Source: a virus
Virus record (IMG/VR): IMGVR_UViG_3300027969_000005
Location: 1 to 59,387 of that record
Reading direction: 5' to 3' (one strand)
DNA length: 59,387 bases
A model generated the notes under the pieces. The model had not been told where the DNA came from and searched no databases. It was given only the letters and a program-made list of their open reading frames with translations. The stretch's first letter is position 1. Every line of letters starts with the position of its first letter. Below are positions 15,853 through 32,990 of this stretch, one piece after another. The translations under genes and the position numbers were made by a program.

Positions 15853-18489
15853 CTATGCGGGGTAAAGCGGCTGCAATTGGCCGCCGGGATAGGTCTTCAT
15901 GGACTCGATCTCTTCAATTCGCTCAGCGCCACGGGTCAAAAGCCCAATATCACGCATGTGGCGCAAGGCCTGAGACACCGTATCGACCATATCGTCGTGC
16001 TTTCCCTTAGGGAATTGTCCGACTTGGGTGATTAAGGCTTCTGCCCACGACCGATCTGGCGCATAGATCATGCCCTCGGCAAACAGATGCTGGATCGAAT
16101 AGAGGCGAGACAGCTTATCTTGGCTCTTTGGGTCGTGAAGCTGCACGCCAAACCGCTCGTGGTTATACAGACGCCGGATTTCCTGCGCCACAGAGTGTCC
16201 GGCGGCCTTGTTCTCGATTAAAAGCACGTCAACCTTGAGCGACCGGCATGTCTTGGCGACCTTTTCGACCAGTTCGTGGATCTCCAAACGTGCCTCCCAA
16301 GCATGCATCAGCATGACCTTGGGCGCGGCGTCCATATAGGACCGGTCGATATACATTGGCCGACCATCAGCATCCAAAATGCGCGAGGCCTGCGCCGTCG
16401 TTTCAGACGTGAAGACGCCCCAGATGCTCAGGGCGCTAGGGTCATTCATTGTCTTGGTCGTATAGGCGGTGTCCAAAGACGCCACGATGTAATCCATCGG
16501 CGGGAAGGACGCATCCTCCCACAATTGCCACCAGTCTCGCTTGATGACACCGCCCCCGGCGGGCTCAGGACGCTGCTGTAGCTGACCGGCGGCGGAGAAC
16601 GGACCCAAGGCACGCTCAAGGCGCGACACCTCTGCATCGCCAAACCGCTCGGGCCAGAGCAGTTCGCCCGGTTCGCTTCGTGGATCCTTCCAGCCGATAC
16701 CAGATACAAATGACCGCTCAGGTTCATAACGCATGGGAAGCATCAGGTGCGTCCAGTCATCGCGCTCCTTCTCAAGGATGTGGCCGGTCAGGTCGTCTTC
16801 GGCCAGACGCTGCTGGATGATCACGAACGCGCCCGTCTTGGGATCGTTGAGACGGGTGCTCATGGTGCCGTCCCACCACTCCTTGGTGGTCTCGATCGTG
16901 GCCTCAGAGAAGGCCTCAGACGCAGCGTTGGGGTCATCGACGATTATGCAATTGTGGACGAGAACTCCATCAGCAAAGAAGTTGCTAAATTCCTCAACTT
17001 GTATGTCATAGACCCACTCCTCTCTTGTGCCCAAAGATGCAACAGAGGAGACACCGTCAAAGTTCCAACGTGATGTTTGGCATGACAAGGCTGGCAAAGA
17101 GTAATCAGGTTTTCCGGCTCGTTGTTTTGAGGGTTGTGATCCACATGATGGACATGAAGAATTGATCTTGCATGAGATCCCCGTGGAAGCTTCATCTCCG
17201 CCTCCCCGCAAGCTGTGCATTCGTGATCGTCCCGCTCCAAAACAACCCGCCTCATTAATTTGTAAAGATTCGAGTATGGGGAATTGTTCTTGAAGTTTGA
17301 GTTCAATCTCCCCCGCATTCTGTCCGAATGATCCGCATCCGCACAAGCTGGAGAACAATATATTGTCCATATCTTGCCGCTCGGCATAAGTTTCATTCCG
17401 AAAATCGTTCCACAGCGGGGGCAAGATCGTTTCTTTTGATTTTTCCACCGCCATATTGCCTTGCAAGCATCCGAACAACATTTCGAGTGTCGGGTCTTTC
17501 TTGGCTTTTCGCAAACGACGCATTGAGCCGTATTTTTTGTCGCATGATGTGCTGAGCAACATATTTTCGAGCAATAGGCATCCCGACTGTTTTGCTTGAG
17601 CGCCTTCCTTGCTTCGTATAGTTGTTTTTCCGTCCGCTTCCCGCAATTGTCGCAAATCAAATGAAGAACTATTGTCCTTCCCGTTTTCGACAATAAGCCC
17701 GTCTCCTCTCCCCATTTCAGAAGCAAAGATATATCCCCACCCCGGTGAGAAGATTGGATGGTCTCCAGTACAGATAAATCGATTTCCCGAAAATGAATCC
17801 AATTGATAGAGGTCATTTGACTTCCTACGGTGTGTGGCTAAAATTTTAGAACTTACCACCTTACCCCGTGAATGATCAAACGCCAATATAATGTCACCGA
17901 TTTTTAGAGATTCGATTGGAACATGGCCCGCAGGCGTTGAAACCATCGTTCCCGCCACAAAACAGCTTCCGCCCTCACCGGTCACCGCCGCGCCAACGGA
18001 CGTGATCAGGCGCTCACCGCCCTTGTCGTTGGAGAAACGGCTTTTGGTGTTTTGGTCGCTGTTGAGCGTAAACCGATCACCCCACATGGACTGATACCAC
18101 GGGCTCTCGATCAGGCGTCGGCACTTGACACTGTCTCGCAAGGTCAACTGCTGGGCATAGGACGCATGCAGGAACTGCACGCCCGGCCCAGAAGTGGGGC
18201 CGCGATAGCTTTGCGCCCATGTCCATGCTGGAAAAGCCACCGAAGTAATCGATGACTTTCCAAAACGCGGAGGCACATTAATTATTAGACGTCTAATTTC
18301 CCCATCAACAACGGCTTGCAGATGTTCCGCAATTGCCTCGATGGGCCATCCGTCAGTCCATGGTGAGCTATCGATGTAGCGCCACGCATGGGTCAAAAAC
18401 AGATAGAGGCTGTCTTCGTATTCCGCCCGATCCAAGTCGAGCAATTGTCTTTTGGCATCGACCGTCAGACCACCAAGATCAACCTTCAT
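15853..18489 (-). CDS. terL: Terminase large subunit interrupted by an intein
   Basis: Start ATG 18489 is preceded by GAGG; more distal starts lack a site. In this 878-aa precursor the ATPase Walker A motif is PPRFGKSS (73-80). Walker B, IIVDDP, begins immediately after C514. Nuclease acids are D673 (VASLDTAY), E759 (LLIEN) and D832/D833 (HDDMVD). An intein of 338 residues occupies C176-N513, leaving an extein of 540 residues, a normal terminase size. The protein cuts concatemers and pumps DNA into the head through the portal. It can work only after splicing restores the chain at GEGGS/CIIVDDP. It overlaps terS by 11 bases. Confidence 0.9.
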   Translation of the reverse strand: MKVDLGGLTVDAKRQLLDLDRAEYEDSLYLFLTHAWRYIDSSPWTDGWPIEAIAEHLQAVVDGEIRRLIINVPPRFGKSSITSVAFPAWTWAQSYRGPTSGPGVQFLHASYAQQLTLRDSVKCRRLIESPWYQSMWGDRFTLNSDQNTKSRFSNDKGGERLITSVGAAVTGEGGSCFVAGTMVSTPAGHVPIESLKIGDIILAFDHSRGKVVSSKILATHRRKSNDLYQLDSFSGNRFICTGDHPIFSPGWGYIFASEMGRGDGLIVENGKDNSSSFDLRQLREADGKTTIRSKEGAQAKQSGCLLLENMLLSTSCDKKYGSMRRLRKAKKDPTLEMLFGCLQGNMAVEKSKETILPPLWNDFRNETYAERQDMDNILFSSLCGCGSFGQNAGEIELKLQEQFPILESLQINEAGCFGAGRSRMHSLRGGGDEASTGISCKINSSCPSCGSQPSKQRAGKPDYSLPALSCQTSRWNFDGVSSVASLGTREEWVYDIQVEEFSNFFADGVLVHNCIIVDDPNAASEAFSEATIETTKEWWDGTMSTRLNDPKTGAFVIIQQRLAEDDLTGHILEKERDDWTHLMLPMRYEPERSFVSGIGWKDPRSEPGELLWPERFGDAEVSRLERALGPFSAAGQLQQRPEPAGGGVIKRDWWQLWEDASFPPMDYIVASLDTAYTTKTMNDPSALSIWGVFTSETTAQASRILDADGRPMYIDRSYMDAAPKVMLMHAWEARLEIHELVEKVAKTCRSLKVDVLLIENKAAGHSVAQEIRRLYNHERFGVQLHDPKSQDKLSRLYSIQHLFAEGMIYAPDRSWAEALITQVGQFPKGKHDDMVDTVSQALRHMRDIGLLTRGAERIEEIESMKTYPGGQLQPLYPA
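16944..17816 (-). CDS. HNH homing endonuclease nested out of frame in the intein
   Basis: 290 residues on the same strand as terL but in a different frame, starting inside the intein and ending 7 bases beyond it. The ATG at 17816 has AGGAAG 4 bases upstream; a TTG at 17693 after GGAGAGGAG is an alternative start. Three zinc-ribbon-like repeats follow: C55-x2-C58/C82-x3-C86, C99-x2-C102/C114-x3-C118, C132-x2-C135/C154-x3-C158. Then comes the HNH domain: CTAC (200-203), HVHHVDHNPQNNEPENL (221-237) and LCQPCHAKHH (240-249). It would cut intein-less terL copies to spread the element. Motifs are clear; expression is inferred. Confidence 0.8.
   Translation of the reverse strand: MTSINWIHFREIDLSVLETIQSSHRGGDISLLLKWGEETGLLSKTGRTIVLHLICDNCGKRTEKQLYEARKALKQNSRDAYCSKICCSAHHATKNTAQCVVCEKPRKTRHSKCCSDACKAIWRWKNQKKRSCPRCGTIFGMKLMPSGKIWTIYCSPACADADHSDRMRGRLNSNFKNNSPYSNLYKLMRRVVLERDDHECTACGEAEMKLPRGSHARSILHVHHVDHNPQNNEPENLITLCQPCHAKHHVGTLTVSPLLHLWAQERSGSMTYKLRNLATSLLMEFSSTIA
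16951..17964 (-). mobile_element. Class 1 intein in the terminase ATPase domain
   Basis: Block A begins at C176 (CFVAGTMVSTPAGHVPIESL). Block B is FICTGDHPI with T241 and H244. Block F/G is VYDIQVEEFSNFFADGVLVHN, ending in H512-N513 followed by C514. All residues for protein splicing are present, so the intein is probably active. Between blocks B and F (about residues 274-490 of the precursor) there is no LAGLIDADG or HNH motif in the terminase frame. Instead that DNA encodes an HNH protein in another frame. Confidence 0.88.
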
Positions 18490-18970
18490 TTGCCTCAAAT
18501 TCCTCTTCATCGGAGGTGTCTTTGTCGTATTGACCCTGCTTGTCGATCGCCTTTTCAAGGATCTCACGCAGTGAATCGCGCTGATCTTGGGTCAAATCGC
18601 GGCTATCGACCGTCTGCGTGCTGGTCTCGCTTTGGATCGGATTGCCGTCTGGGCCGGTAAGCTCAGTGCGGTTTGTCTCACGCCAGCCAAGCTGCGTCTT
18701 TGCCCAGAACATGGCTGCAGGGGCGCAGCTTTTGTGGTTGATGTCCGTGGCAATCTGGAAAAGGGTCGAGACGACCTTAAAGTTCTTCTCGCCCTTCGCC
18801 TTCTTAAGCTCAGCGGGATAGTATTTGACCAGCGTATCGACATGCAAACCCATCATGTCGGCCACCTGAAGGTTGGTCATACCCATGCCAGCAGCCTCGG
18901 CCACTCGCTCGCGGCTTTCGTCTGTGGCAACATGGGCTGGTCGTCCGCGTCGGCGTGGTGCGTCGGTCAT
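18479..18970 (-). CDS. terS: Terminase small subunit
   Basis: 163 residues. Residues about 15-55 form a helix-turn-helix (AAGMGMTNLQVADMMGLHVD), followed by a helical oligomerisation region with APAAMFWAKTQLGWRE (84-99), a hallmark of this phage protein family. The tail is acidic and Glu-rich. It should recognise the packaging site and recruit TerL, whose gene overlaps its last 11 bases. An AGGA site precedes the start. Confidence 0.85.
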   Translation of the reverse strand: MTDAPRRRGRPAHVATDESRERVAEAAGMGMTNLQVADMMGLHVDTLVKYYPAELKKAKGEKNFKVVSTLFQIATDINHKSCAPAAMFWAKTQLGWRETNRTELTGPDGNPIQSETSTQTVDSRDLTQDQRDSLREILEKAIDKQGQYDKDTSDEEEFEANEG

Positions 18971-19032
18971 GGGTGCATCCTATTCATTTGGTCTAATATA
19001 TCTGTGCGCCGGTCGAAAAACTAGCCCCCCAT

Positions 19033-19389
19033 TTAAGTTGGATTGCAAGGCCATGATTCCATCTGGGCCTTAACGACCAGCAATGGCGCTGAATCGTTTC
19101 TGGTTGCCGGGTGACGGGTGATGTAGCTGATCACAACGTCCTTGACCTGACCGACTGTAACACCTGCGGGGGCACAATAGGGTTTGGCCTTATTGGATAG
19201 GGCCCAGAGCGTAAGTGTCGCATCTGCGCCACGGATGTAGCCAAAACAAACGCCGCGCCCCCATTCGTCGGAGCTTGTGCAAAAGCCCAAAAGCTCATTG
19301 CCGTCGTCCGGAACCACGTCTCTGGCCTGCGTGGCCGCAGGCACAAGCACGATCGCGATAGGTAGGATTAGCTTCAATAGGTTGTTCAT
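19033..19389 (-). CDS. Secreted Rap1a/Tai-like protein, 118 aa
   Basis: Start ATG 19389 gives a signal peptide (MNNLLKLILPIAIVLVPAAT, cleavage after ATQA). The mature part has GNELLGFCTSSD, GVCFGYIRGADATLTLW, KPYCAPAGVTVGQVKDVV and MESWPC, the Cys spacing and GYIxG core of the Rap1a/Tai family. Known members are periplasmic immunity proteins that neutralise type VI amidases. The start overlaps the stop of a 49-aa membrane protein (ATGA). In a phage it might guard the cell wall, modulate lysis or block rivals; none of this is shown by the sequence. Confidence 0.75.
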   Translation of the reverse strand: MNNLLKLILPIAIVLVPAATQARDVVPDDGNELLGFCTSSDEWGRGVCFGYIRGADATLTLWALSNKAKPYCAPAGVTVGQVKDVVISYITRHPATRNDSAPLLVVKAQMESWPCNPT

Positions 19390-19535
19390 GATCCAATTCC
19401 GTTCAAAACAATTTTCGCGTGAGCCAAAAGCCAAACGCAGGAATACCAAGAAAAGCAGGCCGCCGGTGCAAGCACCAAGACGGCAATGAATGCGGCGACG
19501 ATGGATGTCGCCCATGAAACGGACTTATCGCTCAT
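19386..19535 (-). CDS. 49-aa single-span membrane protein
   Basis: ATG 19535 with a GAGGAGGGGGAG ribosome site and stop TGA at 19388-19386, overlapping the Rap1a-like start. The sequence is MSDKSVSWATSIVAAFIAVL followed by a continuing hydrophobic stretch to about residue 40, giving one or two membrane spans. Coupling to a secreted protein suggests envelope function, possibly a small holin-like or regulatory membrane protein. A separate holin is found at 35289-35447. Confidence 0.6.
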   Translation of the reverse strand: MSDKSVSWATSIVAAFIAVLVLAPAACFSWYSCVWLLAHAKIVLNGIGS

Positions 19536-19711
19536 CACTCCCCCTCCTCGGGCTGTAGGGCAAGTCTAGCGACGGCTGCCCCGGCGATTACCAACCGGCC
19601 AACAATAGTGCTGAGGTCAGCAGCACAGGGCTTACGCTTTGGCAGAGACACAGGCTGTATCTCTTGAGCTTTTGCGTAGCCATGAAAGTCAAAAATGCTG
19701 AGTTCGCTCAT
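19535..19711 (-). CDS. Small hypothetical protein, 58 aa
   Basis: ATG 19711 to TGA 19535, between two tightly packed genes and coupled to the 49-aa gene by TGATG. It starts MSELSIFDFHGYAKAQEIQP and ends ARLALQPEEGE. Its C-terminal ALQP-x2-GE and the following start signal are near duplicates of the end of the upstream gene (ALQPKDGE). Function unknown. Confidence 0.55.
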   Translation of the reverse strand: MSELSIFDFHGYAKAQEIQPVSLPKRKPCAADLSTIVGRLVIAGAAVARLALQPEEGE

Positions 19712-21600: not shown

Positions 21601-21864
21601 TTATAGCCCTCCGATCGCGGACAGGTACAGGTCGATCAACGCCTCAAGCTCAAGGCGCTTAGCGCGATCCATCTTCCGCATGGCTACGATCTTGCGGATA
21701 GCCTTGACGTCGTAGCCATCGTACTTGGCTTCGGCATAGACCTCCTTAAGGTCACCAGCGATATCGTCAGCATCTTGATTGAGGCGCTCGATGCGCTCAA
21801 CAATTGTGCGGAGGCGGGTTTGTGCTTCGCCATTAAGCACGTCGGCGGAAACTTTGTCGGTCAT
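21601..21864 (-). CDS. gapR: GapR-like (DUF2312) DNA-binding protein
   Basis: 87 residues covering the whole GapR domain: NGEAQTRLRTIVERIERLNQ (11-30), DIAGDLKEVYAEAKYDGYDV (34-53) and KAIRKIVAMRKMD (54-66). Cellular GapR is a small alphaproteobacterial protein that binds overtwisted, A/T-rich DNA ahead of forks and polymerases and stimulates type II topoisomerases. A phage copy could aid replication of phage DNA or displace the host protein. The domain is full-length with all charged positions present. Confidence 0.88.
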   Translation of the reverse strand: MTDKVSADVLNGEAQTRLRTIVERIERLNQDADDIAGDLKEVYAEAKYDGYDVKAIRKIVAMRKMDRAKRLELEALIDLYLSAIGGL

Positions 21865-26189: not shown

Positions 26190-28340
26190 TCATTCGGCCT
26201 CCTGAATGGGCTGCCAGCCGTTGTCCGCACGACCGATGACCCGCAGTCCGCGAGCCTTGGTATTCTTGTTGTGTGTGTCGAGCGCGATGACGTTGTTCAC
26301 CAGCCAAGCCTCGATCATGGTGGCCGCCATCTCTGGCGTGATGCCCCAGCCAATGATGTGCTGAACCGCATGGCGACCCTCGTGGCGGGTCTGTGGGGCG
26401 TTGGACCACGGCTTGTCTGAGTTCCAAGCTGAGGACATCGCGTCGAGGATTTTCTGGCAGATTTCTTTCGATGGCCATGCGTCGGCCTGCGGCGGTTCCT
26501 CACGGGTGATGTGGGCATAGAGCGACTGCGTACCCCGGACATCGCCCGTGTCCGTCAGCGCGAGCCTGAAGGGCACCTTCCAGCCATCTGCTGCTGCCTT
26601 GATCTTTTTGGCGGTGAGGTAACCGATTTCCTCGCCCTCCTCTCTGGTGACGGACAGGATGCTGTCGGCTGCGCCATCGAGGACGGATGATCCGCGCATG
26701 GTGCCGGTGGACTTGGCGACGTGGTGAACACCCAGCACCGCGCAGCCGAAGGTCTCGCGCACCTCGTCGCAGGCCTTGATGAACAGGGTGATCTCCTTGG
26801 CCGCATTCTCGTCCGCGCCGGGCAGGACGCGAGAGACCGTGTCCACCACGATCATGGCCGGTGGATCGCCTGCGCGGTTGGCCGTGGCCTCGATCGTGCG
26901 GAGCAGGCGGTTGATGTCGTCGCGCTGCATGAAATTGATTGACTGATGGACGAGGTAGAACGGCACGTCGTTGACGTTCTGGCCGGTGCCCTGCTCCCAC
27001 GCCATGATCCTGTGTTTCATGTCCGTGGTGCCCTCAGGGCTGATATAGATCACCGGCCCATGGCGCTTGATGTCGCGTTCGAACCACTGGTCCTGCTTGG
27101 ATGCGATGCTGAGGGCCATGCCGATGGCTATGAACGATTTACCTGAGCCCGGTGCGCCGGGGATGAAATTGAGGCTCTTCTCGATCAGCAGGCCAGAGAT
27201 CAGCCAGACCGGATCGGGCAGGCGCTTGATCTGGCCGATGTCCAGAGCCTCATAGGTGTCGGCTATCGGTGCAAACTCATCCGTGATCTCGCCGGTCTCA
27301 GGATCGTAAGCGGGTGCCGCGTCCGGTCGATAGGGCGCGGCGTCCTGCTTTGGGCTGGGTTGACTAGCTGCCTCCGCCACCTTCGTGTTCCACATGCCGA
27401 TAGCTATGGCCCACTTTTGCTGGAACAGGCTGATGCCCCTGCCCTCACGCTCAAGCAGGATATGGTTGGCTGTGCCGGGCTCTCGGATGCGCGATTTGAC
27501 GTTGCGCTCGTAAAGCTGCCAAGCGTCTCGCATGTGCTCTGGTTCGGTGGGGGCGATGGGGAAGCCCGCCGTCTCCCTGTAGAGGTCAAGGACGCGACCC
27601 CAGATCAACCGGGTCATATAGTCCTCACGACCATCGATGATGGCTCCAAAGGCGTCCGTGGCGGCCTCAGGCGTCGGTGTGGAGGTGACAGGCCCCTGTG
27701 GCTGCGTGTCAGCGCCGCTGGCGGCTGTCCTGCCATGCTGGGCTAGTAGGGCGTCCACAGCATTGCAAAGCCACATGGGGGCTTCCTCGGCATCCATGTC
27801 CCATGGTGCCAGACCGTCGAGCCACTGGTAGACGCCCAGCACGCCCTGAGACGGCGGCAGCATGGCAAAGCCTCCGAAGCCCCTGATGTCCACGCCGATA
27901 GGCGTCTTGCCTGTCGGAGGTGTCCACCAGTCTGGGGCTGCGAACACAAGTTGCAGGCCGCCGGACTGCGTGCGCTGCGTCCATGTCTCGATGGCCATGC
28001 CATTGTTGTGCAGAGCCAGCAGGCCCTGCCACCACTGGTTTGCTGCGTCCGTTTTTGACGTATCGAGGTCCAGCACCCAGTAGCGTTTGCCGTGCGCCTT
28101 CACGCCGGTGATCATGCCCATATTGATCCGCAGGCGATACTGGCCAGATGTGGCGTCGTACCACTGCGTGAACAGTTGATCGTCGATCAGATCGTTCTCG
28201 TGAATCCGCCATGGCACCGCTGGCCGCTTCCACTGATCCGATTCGCCCGGCGCGAGAGCCGGGACGACCTGAAAGCCTTTTGATCGGTACATATCCGCCC
28301 ACTGCTGGGGCGACGAAAATTCGGGATCGAAATCGGTCAT
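26190..28340 (-). CDS. Primase-polymerase / RepA-type helicase
   Basis: 716 residues with two domains. The N-terminal 200 match bifunctional primase/polymerase (PrimPol): catalytic pair D91/D93 (VLDLDTS), SGGLQLVF (126-133) and GVDIRGFGGFAMLPPSQ (149-165). The usual His of SGGxH is Gln130. Residues about 375-600 are an AAA/RecA-type helicase like RSF1010 RepA: Walker A GAPGSGKS (395-402), Walker B MIVVDTVS (496-503), GVHHVAKS (537-544) and GSSVLDGAAD (550-559). It should open and prime phage DNA at the adjacent iterons. No phage polymerase is present, so the host enzyme is presumably used. Confidence 0.85.
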   Translation of the reverse strand: MTDFDPEFSSPQQWADMYRSKGFQVVPALAPGESDQWKRPAVPWRIHENDLIDDQLFTQWYDATSGQYRLRINMGMITGVKAHGKRYWVLDLDTSKTDAANQWWQGLLALHNNGMAIETWTQRTQSGGLQLVFAAPDWWTPPTGKTPIGVDIRGFGGFAMLPPSQGVLGVYQWLDGLAPWDMDAEEAPMWLCNAVDALLAQHGRTAASGADTQPQGPVTSTPTPEAATDAFGAIIDGREDYMTRLIWGRVLDLYRETAGFPIAPTEPEHMRDAWQLYERNVKSRIREPGTANHILLEREGRGISLFQQKWAIAIGMWNTKVAEAASQPSPKQDAAPYRPDAAPAYDPETGEITDEFAPIADTYEALDIGQIKRLPDPVWLISGLLIEKSLNFIPGAPGSGKSFIAIGMALSIASKQDQWFERDIKRHGPVIYISPEGTTDMKHRIMAWEQGTGQNVNDVPFYLVHQSINFMQRDDINRLLRTIEATANRAGDPPAMIVVDTVSRVLPGADENAAKEITLFIKACDEVRETFGCAVLGVHHVAKSTGTMRGSSVLDGAADSILSVTREEGEEIGYLTAKKIKAAADGWKVPFRLALTDTGDVRGTQSLYAHITREEPPQADAWPSKEICQKILDAMSSAWNSDKPWSNAPQTRHEGRHAVQHIIGWGITPEMAATMIEAWLVNNVIALDTHNKNTKARGLRVIGRADNGWQPIQEAE

Positions 28341-28480: not shown

Positions 28481-28843
28481 CTATGGATCAACCCCCAGCG
28501 CACGGTCAATCAATTCTCTGCCCCTCGGTGCGAGCAGATATCCAACCATTGTTGTGGTGATGATATCCGCCCCCAGCTTTTTCCGCATCCGGCTGACATA
28601 GACCTTTACGTCGTGGTTGGTCTGGGGGTCTTCGGTCCTCTGGTGAACACGGTTCGCATGCAGGAAGTCTGAGCGTCTGGGGCGACCATTGGCATGGTAC
28701 AGGTGCATGAGGATACCAGCCTCATTGGGCGTGATGCCATAGGCCATGCACAGCTTGGCGTGCGCCTCTGTGTGGGCGTAGCCGATCTGCAGTTCCAGAT
28801 CAGCGATCTTGGCCTTCAGCTCTTCGCATTGGGGACAGGTCAT
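28481..28843 (-). CDS. Winged-helix regulator, CtrA/OmpR-type DNA-binding domain
   Basis: 120 residues. A short N-terminal coiled coil with C3-x2-C6 (MTCPQCEELKAKIADLELQI) replaces the receiver domain. Residues about 35-115 form a winged helix: ITPNEAGILMHLYHANGRPR, HDVKVYVSRMRKKLGADIIT and the wing TTMVGYLLAPRG. The VKVYVSRMRKKLG helix is that of CtrA/OmpR recognition helices. Lacking a phosphorylation domain, it may act constitutively on phage or CtrA-type host promoters. Its stop precedes the RuvC-like gene start overlap region (28840). Confidence 0.72.
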   Translation of the reverse strand: MTCPQCEELKAKIADLELQIGYAHTEAHAKLCMAYGITPNEAGILMHLYHANGRPRRSDFLHANRVHQRTEDPQTNHDVKVYVSRMRKKLGADIITTTMVGYLLAPRGRELIDRALGVDP

Positions 28844-29316
28844 TTCAGGCCTGCCCCATAAATCGCGATCAGGGATGCGTCTGATCGACCGTCGTCTTTG
28901 ATGCGCTTAAACAGATCAGCCTGATCGGGCCAGATTTCCATAGCCCTCTGGCGCGATCCGTCTTTGCCGCCACGAACCTTGATAGCCATCTGCCAGACCT
29001 TCGGGGTGACGATGGTCGTGGGGATCCCACAGGCGGCCAGAGCGCCGATCACCACGCCTGTGCTGTAACCGAAGCTGAACACGCTGGTGACGCCTTGGCC
29101 GGGCATAGCACCCACGCGCTCAACGCAAGCGGAGGCGATCTGCTGCTCCTGCGACGACAGAATGTGCGCGACCATCGCCGGGCTGATTTCGCGTTTCTTT
29201 TTGCCAGACCGCATGACCTCAAGGGTTGGCATGTCGTGGACCTCGATCTGGTGCGAGGCGGTGTCGTAAAAGGCGATGGCCCCGGACAGGCCGGGATCGA
29301 TACCGATGACTATCAT
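28840..29316 (-). CDS. RuvC-like Holliday junction resolvase
   Basis: Start ATG 29316 (MIVIGIDPGLSGAIAFYD) with AGGAAAC upstream; a longer reading to 29490 has no support. 158 residues with the RuvC acids: D7 (GIDPGLSGA), E66 (CVERVG), and D142/D146 (KDDGRSDASLIAIYG). It would cut branched DNA before packaging or during recombination. It overlaps the regulator gene downstream by ATGA. Confidence 0.85.
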   Translation of the reverse strand: MIVIGIDPGLSGAIAFYDTASHQIEVHDMPTLEVMRSGKKKREISPAMVAHILSSQEQQIASACVERVGAMPGQGVTSVFSFGYSTGVVIGALAACGIPTTIVTPKVWQMAIKVRGGKDGSRQRAMEIWPDQADLFKRIKDDGRSDASLIAIYGAGLK

Positions 29317-29327
29317 TTGGTTGTTTC

Positions 29328-29456
29328 CTAAATTTCTGTTTTGAACCAGACAAAATGAGGGATCTGCGCCGCCTGCCGATACGCCGCGATGACGTAGGCT
29401 GGCGGCGCGGCGGCAGGGCGCAGGACGGTAAGCTGCGCCGGGGTGAGGGAGATCAT
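29328..29456 (-). CDS. Small hypothetical protein, 42 aa
   Basis: ATG 29456 overlaps the stop of the 107-aa gene (GAATGA) and the gene ends with TAG at 29328, 11 bases before the RuvC start. Sequence starts MISLTPAQLTVLRPAAAPPA and ends HFVWFKTEI. Supported only by coupling; weak otherwise. Confidence 0.4.
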   Translation of the reverse strand: MISLTPAQLTVLRPAAAPPAYVIAAYRQAAQIPHFVWFKTEI

Positions 29457-29776
29457 TCTCCAGACTTGCGCTTGAGGGCCGCGTCGGCAAGGGCGCCCAT
29501 CGCAGGGTTTGCGGTGTGGTCGGCGATCAGTTCCTCGCCATCGGGGTCATTACCCCAGACGAGAAGCATCCAACCGACCTTGTTGCCGGTGGCGTCGAAA
29601 AACAGCATCTGGTCTTCGTCGGTCTCACCGATGTCGTCCCAGATCTCATAGAAGGTGGTGGATCGTGGCGACCACTCCTCGCCGTCATGGACGGCGATCG
29701 AGTAGCCTTCAGCCAGCGCGGCCTTGACCAGACGGCGGGCGACGCGCTGCTCACCCCTGTTAAGTTCTGCGTACAT
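29453..29776 (-). CDS. Hypothetical protein, 107 aa
   Basis: Begins MYAELNRGEQRVARRLVKAA, then HDGEEWSPRSTTFYEIWDDI and a strand-rich centre (EDQMLFFDATGNKVGWMLLV) with an acidic loop (GNDPDGEELIADHT). Resembles small alpha/beta phage proteins of unknown function. It lies between the membrane protein and RuvC in one minus operon. Confidence 0.6.
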   Translation of the reverse strand: MYAELNRGEQRVARRLVKAALAEGYSIAVHDGEEWSPRSTTFYEIWDDIGETDEDQMLFFDATGNKVGWMLLVWGNDPDGEELIADHTANPAMGALADAALKRKSGE

Positions 29777-29787
29777 TTCGGTAGCTC

Positions 29788-30156
29788 CTATGAAAACAAA
29801 AGCATCAGGCCGTAGAGCAAGCCACCACCTAGCGCCAAGGCGCAGAAGCCGATGCCCATGCCCATGAGCCCAAACATGAACCTGTCGAATAGGCTGTCGC
29901 CCCCGTAGCCCCCGCCCTTTATCGCGCCAATCAAAAACCCGCCGATCAGGAAGATCATGATAACCGCAACGGCGGCCTTGCTGGTGGGCTCAGGGTTTAA
30001 ACGATGCACGCAGTCTGCGTAGGCGATCTGGGCCTGTGTGTTGGCCGTCTGGGCGTTGAAGCCTTGGATGAGCACCCGACAGGACATGTCGTGCGCGCGC
30101 TCGGTTGCGGCGATTGCCGCGCTGTTCGCGGCGATGATAGCTACTGTAGCTGGCAT
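29788..30156 (-). CDS. Two-span membrane protein, 122 aa
   Basis: GGAGAAAA site before ATG 30156. After a soluble N-terminal half (about 1-60), two hydrophobic segments follow: AAVAVIMIFLIGGFLIGAI (about 61-79) and GLMGMGIGFCALALGGGLLY (about 95-114), joined by a Gly-rich loop. No signal peptide. An inner-membrane location is likely. Transcribed from promoter P2. Confidence 0.65.
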   Translation of the reverse strand: MPATVAIIAANSAAIAATERAHDMSCRVLIQGFNAQTANTQAQIAYADCVHRLNPEPTSKAAVAVIMIFLIGGFLIGAIKGGGYGGDSLFDRFMFGLMGMGIGFCALALGGGLLYGLMLLFS

Positions 30157-30181
30157 TATATTTTCTCCATAAAATAAAATA

Positions 30182-30203
30182 GGGACGGGGATGTCCCCGC
30201 CCC
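30182..30203 (-). terminator. G/C hairpin with U-tract at the 5' end of the P2 transcript
   Basis: On the minus strand GGGGCGGGG (30203-30195) pairs with CCCCGTCCC (30190-30182, one G-U), followed by TATTTTATTTT. It can terminate read-through from gcrA, but it also lies just downstream of promoter P2. P2 transcripts would therefore begin with it, which could attenuate or stabilise them. Confidence 0.65.
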
Positions 30204-30207
30204 TCGA

Positions 30208-30236
30208 TACCTATATCGGGCAAATCGCCCTGTCAA
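30208..30236 (-). promoter_or_regulatory. TTGACA promoter with palindromic spacer (P2)
   Basis: Minus-strand TTGACA (30236-30231), spacer starting GGGCGATTTGCCC (30230-30218) with arms GGGC/GCCC, and TAGGTA (30213-30208) at 17 bases. The start would be near 30201, at the base of the hairpin. Same architecture as P1 and P3. Confidence 0.65.
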
Positions 30237-30244
30237 CCGCCTAT

Positions 30245-30814
30245 TTACCGATGACCAACCGCATGTCGAAATTTCCGCTTCGGCGGCGGGCTGGCAATGG
30301 TGCCCATCTTGCGGTGGAACCGGCAATAGGATGACCCGTCGTCCTTAGTCTCGCCGCACATCTTCATGCTGTCGCCCTCGCCGGGCTGTAGCGTCTCCAC
30401 AGGCCACCGGCACCCGCCAGAGCGCAAGAGTGCCAAGGGTGCCGACCAAGCCCCTGTGGGCGGCTCTGGCGGCGTTTCTGTGGCTTTTTGAGGGACTATG
30501 GCCATGCGGGGCTTCTCAGGCTCTGGGGGTTTGGGTGGGGCCGCAAGCTTAAAAGGGACACGCTTCCACGGGTTGGCGAAATTGTGCCGAACGCCACGGT
30601 TATTGATCCTTTTAAACGTGATCGTGGATTCTGGCAATTCAGGCGCGACGCCCTTGGTCCTGAGGCGGCTCAATTTGCCTATCACCGCGTTTCGGGTCAC
30701 GCCGTAGCCAAGTTCCTTCGCGATCTGGGAGGCTGTTTTGCCCGCAACGTACATATCGACAAGGCGCGTGATGGCATCCTCTGTCCAGTCAAAGCAGTCT
30801 TCTCTTTTGGTCAT
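30245..30814 (-). CDS. gcrA: GcrA-like cell-cycle regulator
   Basis: 189 residues from ATG 30814, overlapping the previous stop (ATGA). N-terminal HTH (TEDAITRLVDMYVAGKTASQ, IAKELGYGVTRNAVIGKLSR) is the DNA-binding part of GcrA. A Pro-rich linker is followed by the sigma-interacting-type end GGCRWPVETLQPGEG and MCGETKDDGSSYCRFHRK. In Caulobacter GcrA binds sigma-70 and activates methylated promoters. The phage copy could redirect host RNA polymerase. Full-length; no missing motif. Confidence 0.88.
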   Translation of the reverse strand: MTKREDCFDWTEDAITRLVDMYVAGKTASQIAKELGYGVTRNAVIGKLSRLRTKGVAPELPESTITFKRINNRGVRHNFANPWKRVPFKLAAPPKPPEPEKPRMAIVPQKATETPPEPPTGAWSAPLALLRSGGCRWPVETLQPGEGDSMKMCGETKDDGSSYCRFHRKMGTIASPPPKRKFRHAVGHR

Positions 30815-31164
30815 TGAGTGGACCCTTCCATATGAAAGAATTGTATAGGAAATTGCGATAGTGCTGCGGCCCGACACCGATCGATCAGGGTGTCCTCCGG
30901 TTCACAGCAGGCATCGCAAATGAAGCCGATCAGGTGGGTCCGATCGGTGTAGCCATCCTTGATCGAGTAGGTGATCGAGATGGCGGCGGCATCGAGGGCG
31001 ACGTCGGGCAGGACGTCGGAGCAGACGGCGCAAATACCGCCGGGCCGCGATCTGGCCAGATTGTCGCCAATCTCTCGCATGAGGGCGGTGATGACCGGAT
31101 CGTCACCACCGAAGGACATATAGAGGGCGGCCTGCTCTGGCCGCACCACAAGGCAGTTGATCAT
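30811..31164 (-). CDS. Cys-pair protein, 117 aa
   Basis: Two Cys clusters, C45-AV-C48 and C82-DAC-C86 region, around SITYSIKDGYTDRTHLIGFI, suggest a zinc-binding beta fold. N-terminal helical (ALYMSFGGDDPVITALMREI). Coupled to gcrA downstream and the 74-aa gene upstream by ATGA overlaps. Function unknown. Confidence 0.6.
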   Translation of the reverse strand: MINCLVVRPEQAALYMSFGGDDPVITALMREIGDNLARSRPGGICAVCSDVLPDVALDAAAISITYSIKDGYTDRTHLIGFICDACCEPEDTLIDRCRAAALSQFPIQFFHMEGSTQ

Positions 31165-32873: not shown

Positions 32874-32902
32874 ATCCTGAACCGGCACTAACCGCCTGTC
32901 AA
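32874..32902 (-). promoter_or_regulatory. TTGACA promoter, divergent minus (P5)
   Basis: Minus-strand TTGACA (32902-32897) and CAGGAT (32879-32874), 17 bases apart, 31 bases before ATG 32843. The spacer contains GGC and GCC arms, a weaker palindrome than P3. Back to back with P4. Confidence 0.55.
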
Positions 32903-32916
32903 CCGAATAAATCGTG

Positions 32917-32945
32917 TTGACAGCGGATTTAATGCCCCCTACTGA
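32917..32945 (+). promoter_or_regulatory. TTGACA promoter, divergent plus (P4)
   Basis: TTGACA (32917-32922) and TACTGA (32940-32945), 17 bases apart; CCCCCTACT around the -10 matches P3. Start near 32951, 40 bases before ATG 32991. Drives the RecB-like nuclease and SSB-like genes. Confidence 0.65.
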
Positions 32946-32990
32946 TGGGCCTCGATCTTATCTCATCCCTCATCCAATCGGAGCCGACCA

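What the first reader, a model, noticed from the sequence alone, without database searches (positions are those of the whole stretch)
28481..30814. GcrA and a receiver-less CtrA-type regulator in one early region
gcrA (30245-30814) and a winged-helix protein with the CtrA/OmpR recognition helix but no phosphoacceptor domain (28481-28843) lie in the same replication block; with GapR this makes three cell-cycle-type regulators in one genome. Together they could impose or mimic a replication-competent cell-cycle state. No CcrM-type methylase was found, so the phage may depend on host methylation.
Basis: partly seen in the sequence, partly recalled or inferred. Interest (0 to 1): 0.72.

Follow-up and report, generated by a model that had tools for sequence, protein, structure and literature searches.

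The report
Phage GcrA, GapR, receiver-less winged-helix regulator
A virus of (probably) an alphaproteobacterium carries copies of two host cell-cycle proteins, GcrA and GapR, plus a small DNA-binding protein that is not clearly CtrA; each has known counterparts in other phages, and the idea that they jointly reset the host cell cycle is untested.

Summary
The genes are real. GcrA (30245-30814, -) has both functional parts: the DNA-binding helix-turn-helix and the sigma-70-binding cysteine motif. GapR lies at 21601-21864. The 120-aa protein at 28481-28843 is an OmpR/PhoB-type winged helix with no receiver; it has an N-terminal helix with a CPxC motif instead. It is not specifically CtrA: the CtrA model does not match, a bacterial CtrA profile gives 8.7 bits, its recognition helix differs from CtrA's, and CtrA boxes occur at chance level. 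It distantly resembles an apparently unnamed set of phage/prophage proteins whose DNA-binding domain is clearly CtrA's, with a coiled coil instead of the receiver; Roseobacter phage RDJL Phi 1 'ctrA' is a receiver-less precedent. Linkage of the winged helix with GcrA is no higher than with GapR used as control probe (8/80 vs 6/80): no evidence for a dedicated module. Caulobacter phage RW has all three genes; the closest structural relative found (MW202675) has none. GANTC is strongly depleted, as in other alphaproteobacterial phages, and not concentrated in intergenic DNA. Most likely reading: accessory early regulators, GcrA aimed at host promoters, the winged helix a constitutive dimer with its own specificity.

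The parts
28481..28843 (-). receiver-less winged-helix protein, 120 aa; ATG overlaps the RuvC-like gene's stop by 4 bp
   Evidence: PF00486 29.2 bits over cut-off 26.2; AF2 pLDDT 82; relatives in Caulobacter phage RW group and phage Ssp-JY42
28826..28837 (-). CPxC motif (residues 3-6), shared with RW and JY42 relatives
   Evidence: alignment
28739..28834 (-). N-terminal helix (residues 4-35) in place of a receiver; presumed coiled coil
   Evidence: model; LxxxIxxLE aligned with LRERVRQLE of phage CtrA-type proteins; dimerisation is inferred
28574..28627 (-). recognition helix (residues 73-90), around VKVYVSRMRKKL
   Evidence: DSSP of model; alignment
30245..30814 (-). gcrA, 189 aa; ATG overlaps the upstream gene's stop by 4 bp
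   Evidence: PF07750 7.2e-21; PDB 5yiu/7ye1 GcrA
30662..30793 (-). GcrA DNA-binding helix-turn-helix (residues 8-51; ...TASQIAKELGYGVTRNAVIGKLSRL)
   Evidence: alignment to PDB 5yiu, 4.1e-8
30314..30412 (-). GcrA sigma-interacting region signature (residues 135-167; CRWP..CG..SSYCRFH)
   Evidence: alignment to PDB 7ye1
21601..21864 (-). gapR (DUF2312), 87 aa
   Evidence: PF10073 1.1e-28
28840..29316 (-). RuvC-like Holliday junction resolvase, upstream neighbour of the winged-helix gene
   Evidence: phrog_1770 7.4e-36
26190..28340 (-). primase/helicase, downstream neighbour of the winged-helix gene
   Evidence: PF13481 1.5e-35, PF09250 2.9e-14
32889..32990 (.). divergent intergenic region, presumed promoter region of the leftward block holding gcrA and the winged-helix gene; no GANTC, one TTAA half-site
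   Evidence: promoter not shown

Best explanation
The record is a tailed phage whose early/replication block carries separately acquired accessory regulators. Its GcrA keeps the two working parts of host GcrA and most likely acts as a sigma-70 cofactor that boosts host promoters bearing methylated GANTC during infection (shown: both domains present; inferred: activity and targets). GapR probably binds overtwisted DNA at replication forks or nucleoid DNA as host GapR does (inferred from family knowledge). The 120-aa protein is an OmpR/PhoB-type winged helix in which a helical, presumably dimerising N-terminus replaces the phospho-receiver, so it should bind DNA without a kinase signal (shown: no receiver, long helix in the model; inferred: dimer, constitutive activity). 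It lies at the divergent edge of a set of phage proteins whose core members carry CtrA's own DNA-binding domain, but its recognition helix has changed, so it most likely reads a different site, perhaps the phage's own operators. The genes need not form a dedicated module.
For: GcrA; absence of PF01555 methylase. GapR. Winged helix: PF00486, model, OmpR/PhoB DNA-binding domains among its structural matches at 2.2-2.9 A (tied with MarR-type and T4 MotA rows, so weak). Core set: short proteins with a CtrA-type DNA-binding domain and an N-terminal coil in viral contigs and prophage-like loci, the CtrA model clearly best for one of them, 6.7e-13 against 1e-4 for the next. Window protein: 29.4 bits with the DNA-binding-domain profile of that set, 8.7 bits with bacterial CtrA, 36.2 bits with the full-length profile of that set built without it. 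No module. Accessory nature.
Against: The window DNA-binding domain scores the same with the generic Pfam model (29.2 bits) as with the phage CtrA-type profile, so its place in that set rests on the N-terminal architecture and a weak link through L240 (29% identity). GcrA-GANTC action is assumed from the family. Phage promoters were not mapped.
Confidence: 0.55

Rival explanations
1. CtrA mimic: the winged helix binds host CtrA sites without needing phosphorylation, acting as a permanent CtrA or as a competitor that blocks it, while GcrA drives S-phase genes.
For: Relatives with the same layout carry a genuine CtrA-type DNA-binding domain; several lie next to GcrA; Roseobacter phage RDJL Phi 1 has a receiver-less gene annotated ctrA.
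Against: This protein's recognition helix differs; bacterial CtrA profile 8.7 bits; no CtrA model match; CtrA boxes at chance in the window and in relatives' loci (2 against 1.05 expected).
Confidence: 0.15
2. A coordinated three-gene set (GcrA, winged helix, GapR) that moves together and imposes a replication-competent state.
For: All three in the window, in Caulobacter phage RW and within 20 kb in two other viral contigs.
Against: Pairwise co-occurrence of winged helix and GcrA equals the GapR-probed background; gene order and spacing vary; the closest structural relative found lacks all three.
Confidence: 0.1
3. The winged helix is an ordinary phage transcription switch (early/late or lysogeny) with phage operators only, unrelated to the cell cycle; it may contact sigma or RNA polymerase as T4 MotA does.
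For: Divergent recognition helix; T4 MotA and sigma-appropriation rows among the top structural matches, Z 8.8-8.9, tied with many others.
Against: Tied Z values carry no weight; operator repeats were not searched for; the N-terminal layout points to the phage CtrA-type set.
Confidence: 0.15

Closest known systems
GcrA of Caulobacter and phage GcrA (phiCbK gp222 and relatives; PMC3556154)
   Same: Both domains; PF07750 above cut-off; same HTH core and cysteine signature
   Different: One extra residue in the turn (GYGVTRN), divergent linker; 72 bits against the equivalog cut-off of 280
Caulobacter phage RW gp060 / gp061+gp049 / gp056
   Same: Receiver-less winged helix with N-terminal TCPxC, GcrA parts and GapR in one genome; distantly related portal (30%)
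   Different: GcrA is in two separate genes there: DNA-binding half next to the winged helix, sigma-binding-like half about 10 kb away
Phages Ssp-JY42 and Yong-M4-211 (labelled Synechococcus)
   Same: GcrA gene immediately upstream of the winged-helix gene, overlapping by 4 bp
   Different: No GapR found; recognition helix differs again
Receiver-less CtrA-type proteins of phages (RDJL Phi 1 ctrA; L176-L255)
   Same: Winged helix without receiver; coil or CPxC N-terminus in many members
   Different: Their recognition helix is CtrA's (VDVFVCKxRKKL); the window's is not
CtrA
   Same: OmpR/PhoB-type winged helix
   Different: No receiver or phosphoacceptor; not matched by the CtrA model

Membership tests
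GcrA | PF07750 match over the curated cut-off | tested here: met
   75.6 bits against 26.9
GcrA | N-terminal HTH core TRNAVIGK..RL and C-terminal C.WP..CG..YC..H signature | tested here: met
   alignment to 7ye1
GcrA | NCBIfam equivalog cut-off (host orthologue level) | tested here: not met
   72.2 bits against 280: family member by Pfam, not a host-type orthologue
GcrA | binds sigma-70 domain 2 and methylated GANTC | not testable with these tools
   needs biochemistry
GapR | PF10073 over cut-off | tested here: met
   94.9 bits against 22.6
OmpR/PhoB-type winged helix | PF00486 over cut-off | tested here: met
   29.2 bits against 26.2
CtrA | N-terminal receiver with phosphoacceptor Asp | tested here: not met
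   about 36 residues, mostly one helix, before the winged helix; no receiver
CtrA | CtrA model match / CtrA DNA-binding domain | tested here: not met
   no NCBIfam CtrA match at E<=1; 8.7 bits with a bacterial CtrA profile
CtrA | recognition helix DVF[IV]CKxRKKL | tested here: not met
   VKVYVSRMRKKL
Phage receiver-less CtrA-type set | N-terminal coil/CPxC plus winged helix, no receiver | tested here: met
Phage receiver-less CtrA-type set | DNA-binding domain closer to this set than to generic OmpR/PhoB | tested here: inconclusive
   29.4 bits against 29.2 for Pfam's generic model

The most novel reading that the evidence does not exclude
Phages of Alphaproteobacteria widely carry a receiver-less CtrA held together by a coiled coil, often keeping a C-terminal Ala-Ala like CtrA's degradation tag: a kinase-independent CtrA mimic. 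The window holds a version whose DNA specificity has shifted, together with GcrA and GapR, so that one phage touches several nodes of the host cell-cycle circuit.
Probability: 0.25. Interest if true: 0.65.

Novelty: new member of a known kind. Interest (0 to 1): 0.36.

Why it matters
If phages carry CtrA stripped of its receiver, together with GcrA, they are natural probes of which inputs to the alphaproteobacterial cell cycle can be bypassed, and ready-made constitutive regulators. For this window alone the importance is modest: each gene type already has counterparts in phage genomes.

Tried and rejected
Single-protein scans of viral and genome contigs with the window winged helix, its GcrA and its primase gave no close relative. 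The idea of a fixed GcrA/winged-helix module was raised after and rejected by the GapR control. GANTC in phage promoters: two apparently intergenic sites (19055, 19091) lie in an ORF that the gene caller missed, leaving two (6153, 50548). CtrA boxes: none above chance. A sigma-70 promoter scan of 18800-19600 found nothing. Structure matches do not single out one winged-helix family. GANTC depletion as a GcrA signature was rejected: loci mostly without GcrA show it as strongly, and it is known for Alphaproteobacteria genomes (PMC3973325). Not tested: a tree of the DNA-binding domains (too short for good support); methylase families other than PF01555; a dimer model of the winged helix; direct comparison of each gene's base rate over complete dereplicated phage genomes.

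Full report
What is there. The 59,387-base record is a virus contig with terminase, portal, endolysin and a replication block. On the - strand the order is: small genes, 30811-31164, gcrA (30245-30814), two small genes, a RuvC-like resolvase (28840-29316), the winged-helix gene (28481-28843), primase/helicase (26190-28340). gcrA and the winged-helix gene each overlap the gene before them by 4 bp, as in an operon. gapR is at 21601-21864.

GcrA. The protein matches PF07750 at 7.2e-21 and aligns with Caulobacter GcrA in PDB entries 5yiu and 7ye1, covering the DNA-binding HTH (TASQIAKELGYGVTRNAVIGKLSRL) and the C-terminal signature (CRWP...CG...SSYCRFH) of the sigma-interacting domain. It is below the equivalog cut-off for host orthologues, so it is a divergent family member. 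Phage GcrA is not new: phiCbK-like phages carry it and the same role was proposed in 2012 (PMC3556154); it is also listed in Sinorhizobium prophages (PMC12429752).

The winged helix. PF00486 matches at 29.2 bits, just above the cut-off. Among named response regulators the best matches are TctD and PmrA; the CtrA model does not appear. AlphaFold (pLDDT 82) gives a 32-residue N-terminal helix followed by a winged helix. Structural matches include many OmpR/PhoB DNA-binding domains, but MarR-type and T4 MotA rows tie with them, so the fold alone does not decide the family. By tblastn its relatives are the Caulobacter phage RW group and two phages labelled Synechococcus; all share the N-terminal TCPxC plus helix.

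A wider set. Starting from 80 viral GcrA loci, eight had a winged-helix gene nearby. Two of these served as probes and led to 80 viral contigs and about a dozen prophage-like loci in named Alphaproteobacteria that encode short proteins with a CtrA-type DNA-binding domain (IKIVDVFVCKMRKKL...IETVWGQGYRL); many further loci in the genome scan appear to be the bacterial chromosomal CtrA itself. By an automatic sort 63 of the viral proteins have a short N-terminus, typically a coil (LRERVRQLEE) or a CPxC motif. For one of the probes, L042, the NCBIfam CtrA model is clearly best (6.7e-13; next 1e-4). About half of a non-redundant set end in Ala-Ala, 23 of 49 against 36 of 451 long ORFs in the same loci; host CtrA is known to end this way (own knowledge). 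These proteins are related to one another, so the p-value of 4e-11 overstates independence. Searches of the held papers found no description of this set, but Roseobacter phage RDJL Phi 1 has a 151-aa receiver-less gene annotated ctrA, so there is precedent in GenBank.

Does the window protein belong to that set? Its N-terminus fits (CPQCEELKAKIADLE; compare L240 CEQCEELRERVRQLE). Its DNA-binding domain gets 29.4 bits with that set's profile, 8.7 with bacterial CtrA (nine sequences) and 29.2 with the generic Pfam model. The recognition helix VKVYVSRMRKKL lacks the CtrA residues. It is at best a divergent edge member; 'CtrA-type' is not supported for this protein.

Is the combination meaningful? 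With 80 IMG/VR loci per probe and up to 10 kb on each side: GcrA loci have the winged helix in 8 and GapR in 13; winged-helix loci have GcrA in 8 and GapR in 14; GapR loci have GcrA in 9 and the winged helix in 6. The GcrA/winged-helix rate is therefore not above the GapR-probed background (Fisher p 0.78 and 1.0). Caveats: the loci were not dereplicated, two seeds recur in both sets, and each set holds only the best 80 hits. All three genes occur in two contigs of these sets, in RW and in the window. RW's portal is 30% identical to the window's, so RW may share ancestry with it rather than be independent. The closest structural relative found, MW202675.1 (portal 64% identical), has none of the three. 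They behave as accessory genes.

Methylation motif. GANTC occurs 45 times against 212 expected, or 97.5 under a stricter model. The same depletion is seen in phage loci probed by the winged helix (0.22), most of which have no GcrA, and in GcrA loci (0.30), but not in lambda, P22 or phi674 (0.78-0.88). Depletion is known for alphaproteobacterial genomes, where GANTC is over-represented in intergenic regions (PMC3973325). The window shows no such intergenic excess (4 in 5,154 bp against 41 in about 54 kb; two of the four fall in a missed ORF). This suggests a host from the CcrM-bearing Alphaproteobacteria and that phage GcrA, if it needs GANTC, acts mainly on host promoters; the second step is inference. 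No PF01555 methylase was found. CtrA boxes are at chance; Mascolo et al. (PMC9437464) found clusters of them in other alphaproteobacterial phages.

Verdict. The gene identifications stand except for 'CtrA'. The joint cell-cycle programme is not supported beyond the presence of the genes. The more interesting lead is outside the window: the receiver-less CtrA-type proteins of other phages.

Noticed in passing
window 15853-18489 (-): The terminase large subunit carries an intein-like insertion (PF14890, residues 198-513).
   Followed up: no
window, whole; L348: CCWGG is absent from the window (0 against 156 expected) and nearly absent from relative MW202675.1 (1 against 110); several GC-rich 6-mer palindromes (GCCGGC, CGGCCG, GTCGAC, CCGCGG) are also absent from the window. 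This looks like restriction avoidance.
   Followed up: partly
L348 (MW202675.1): The closest structural relative, which lacks GcrA, has one GANTC in 42 kb (196 expected), against 45 (211 expected) in the window. One pair only; unexplained.
   Followed up: partly
L003 10375-10692 and L015 10372-10935 (Caulobacter phage RW): GcrA appears as two separate genes: a DNA-binding half (gp061, beside the winged helix) and a weak match to the sigma-binding half (gp049, E 0.0014).
   Followed up: partly
L176-L255: 23 of 49 non-redundant phage receiver-less CtrA-type proteins end in Ala-Ala, against 8% of control ORFs; the window protein does not.
   Followed up: partly
L084, L233, L245, L247: Some viral CtrA-type proteins keep an N-terminal region that by eye resembles a degenerate receiver (L084 aligns with full-length response-regulator models).
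   Followed up: no
L002 (Ssp-JY42), L005 (Yong-M4-211): Phages labelled Synechococcus carry GcrA and the winged helix; the JY42 stretch is GANTC-depleted (0.29) as in alphaproteobacterial phages. The host label may deserve a check; no true cyanophage was measured as control.
   Followed up: no
L265 and its record MW980061.1: Rhizobium phage RHph_X2_30 has a CtrA-type protein with an N-terminal CPCC motif and two PF07750 matches in one frame about 6.5 kb away.
   Followed up: no
window 19033-19515 (-): ORF for a small protein with a signal-like N-terminus (MNNLLKLILPIAIVL...), upstream of the terminase small-subunit candidate, missed by the gene caller.
   Followed up: no
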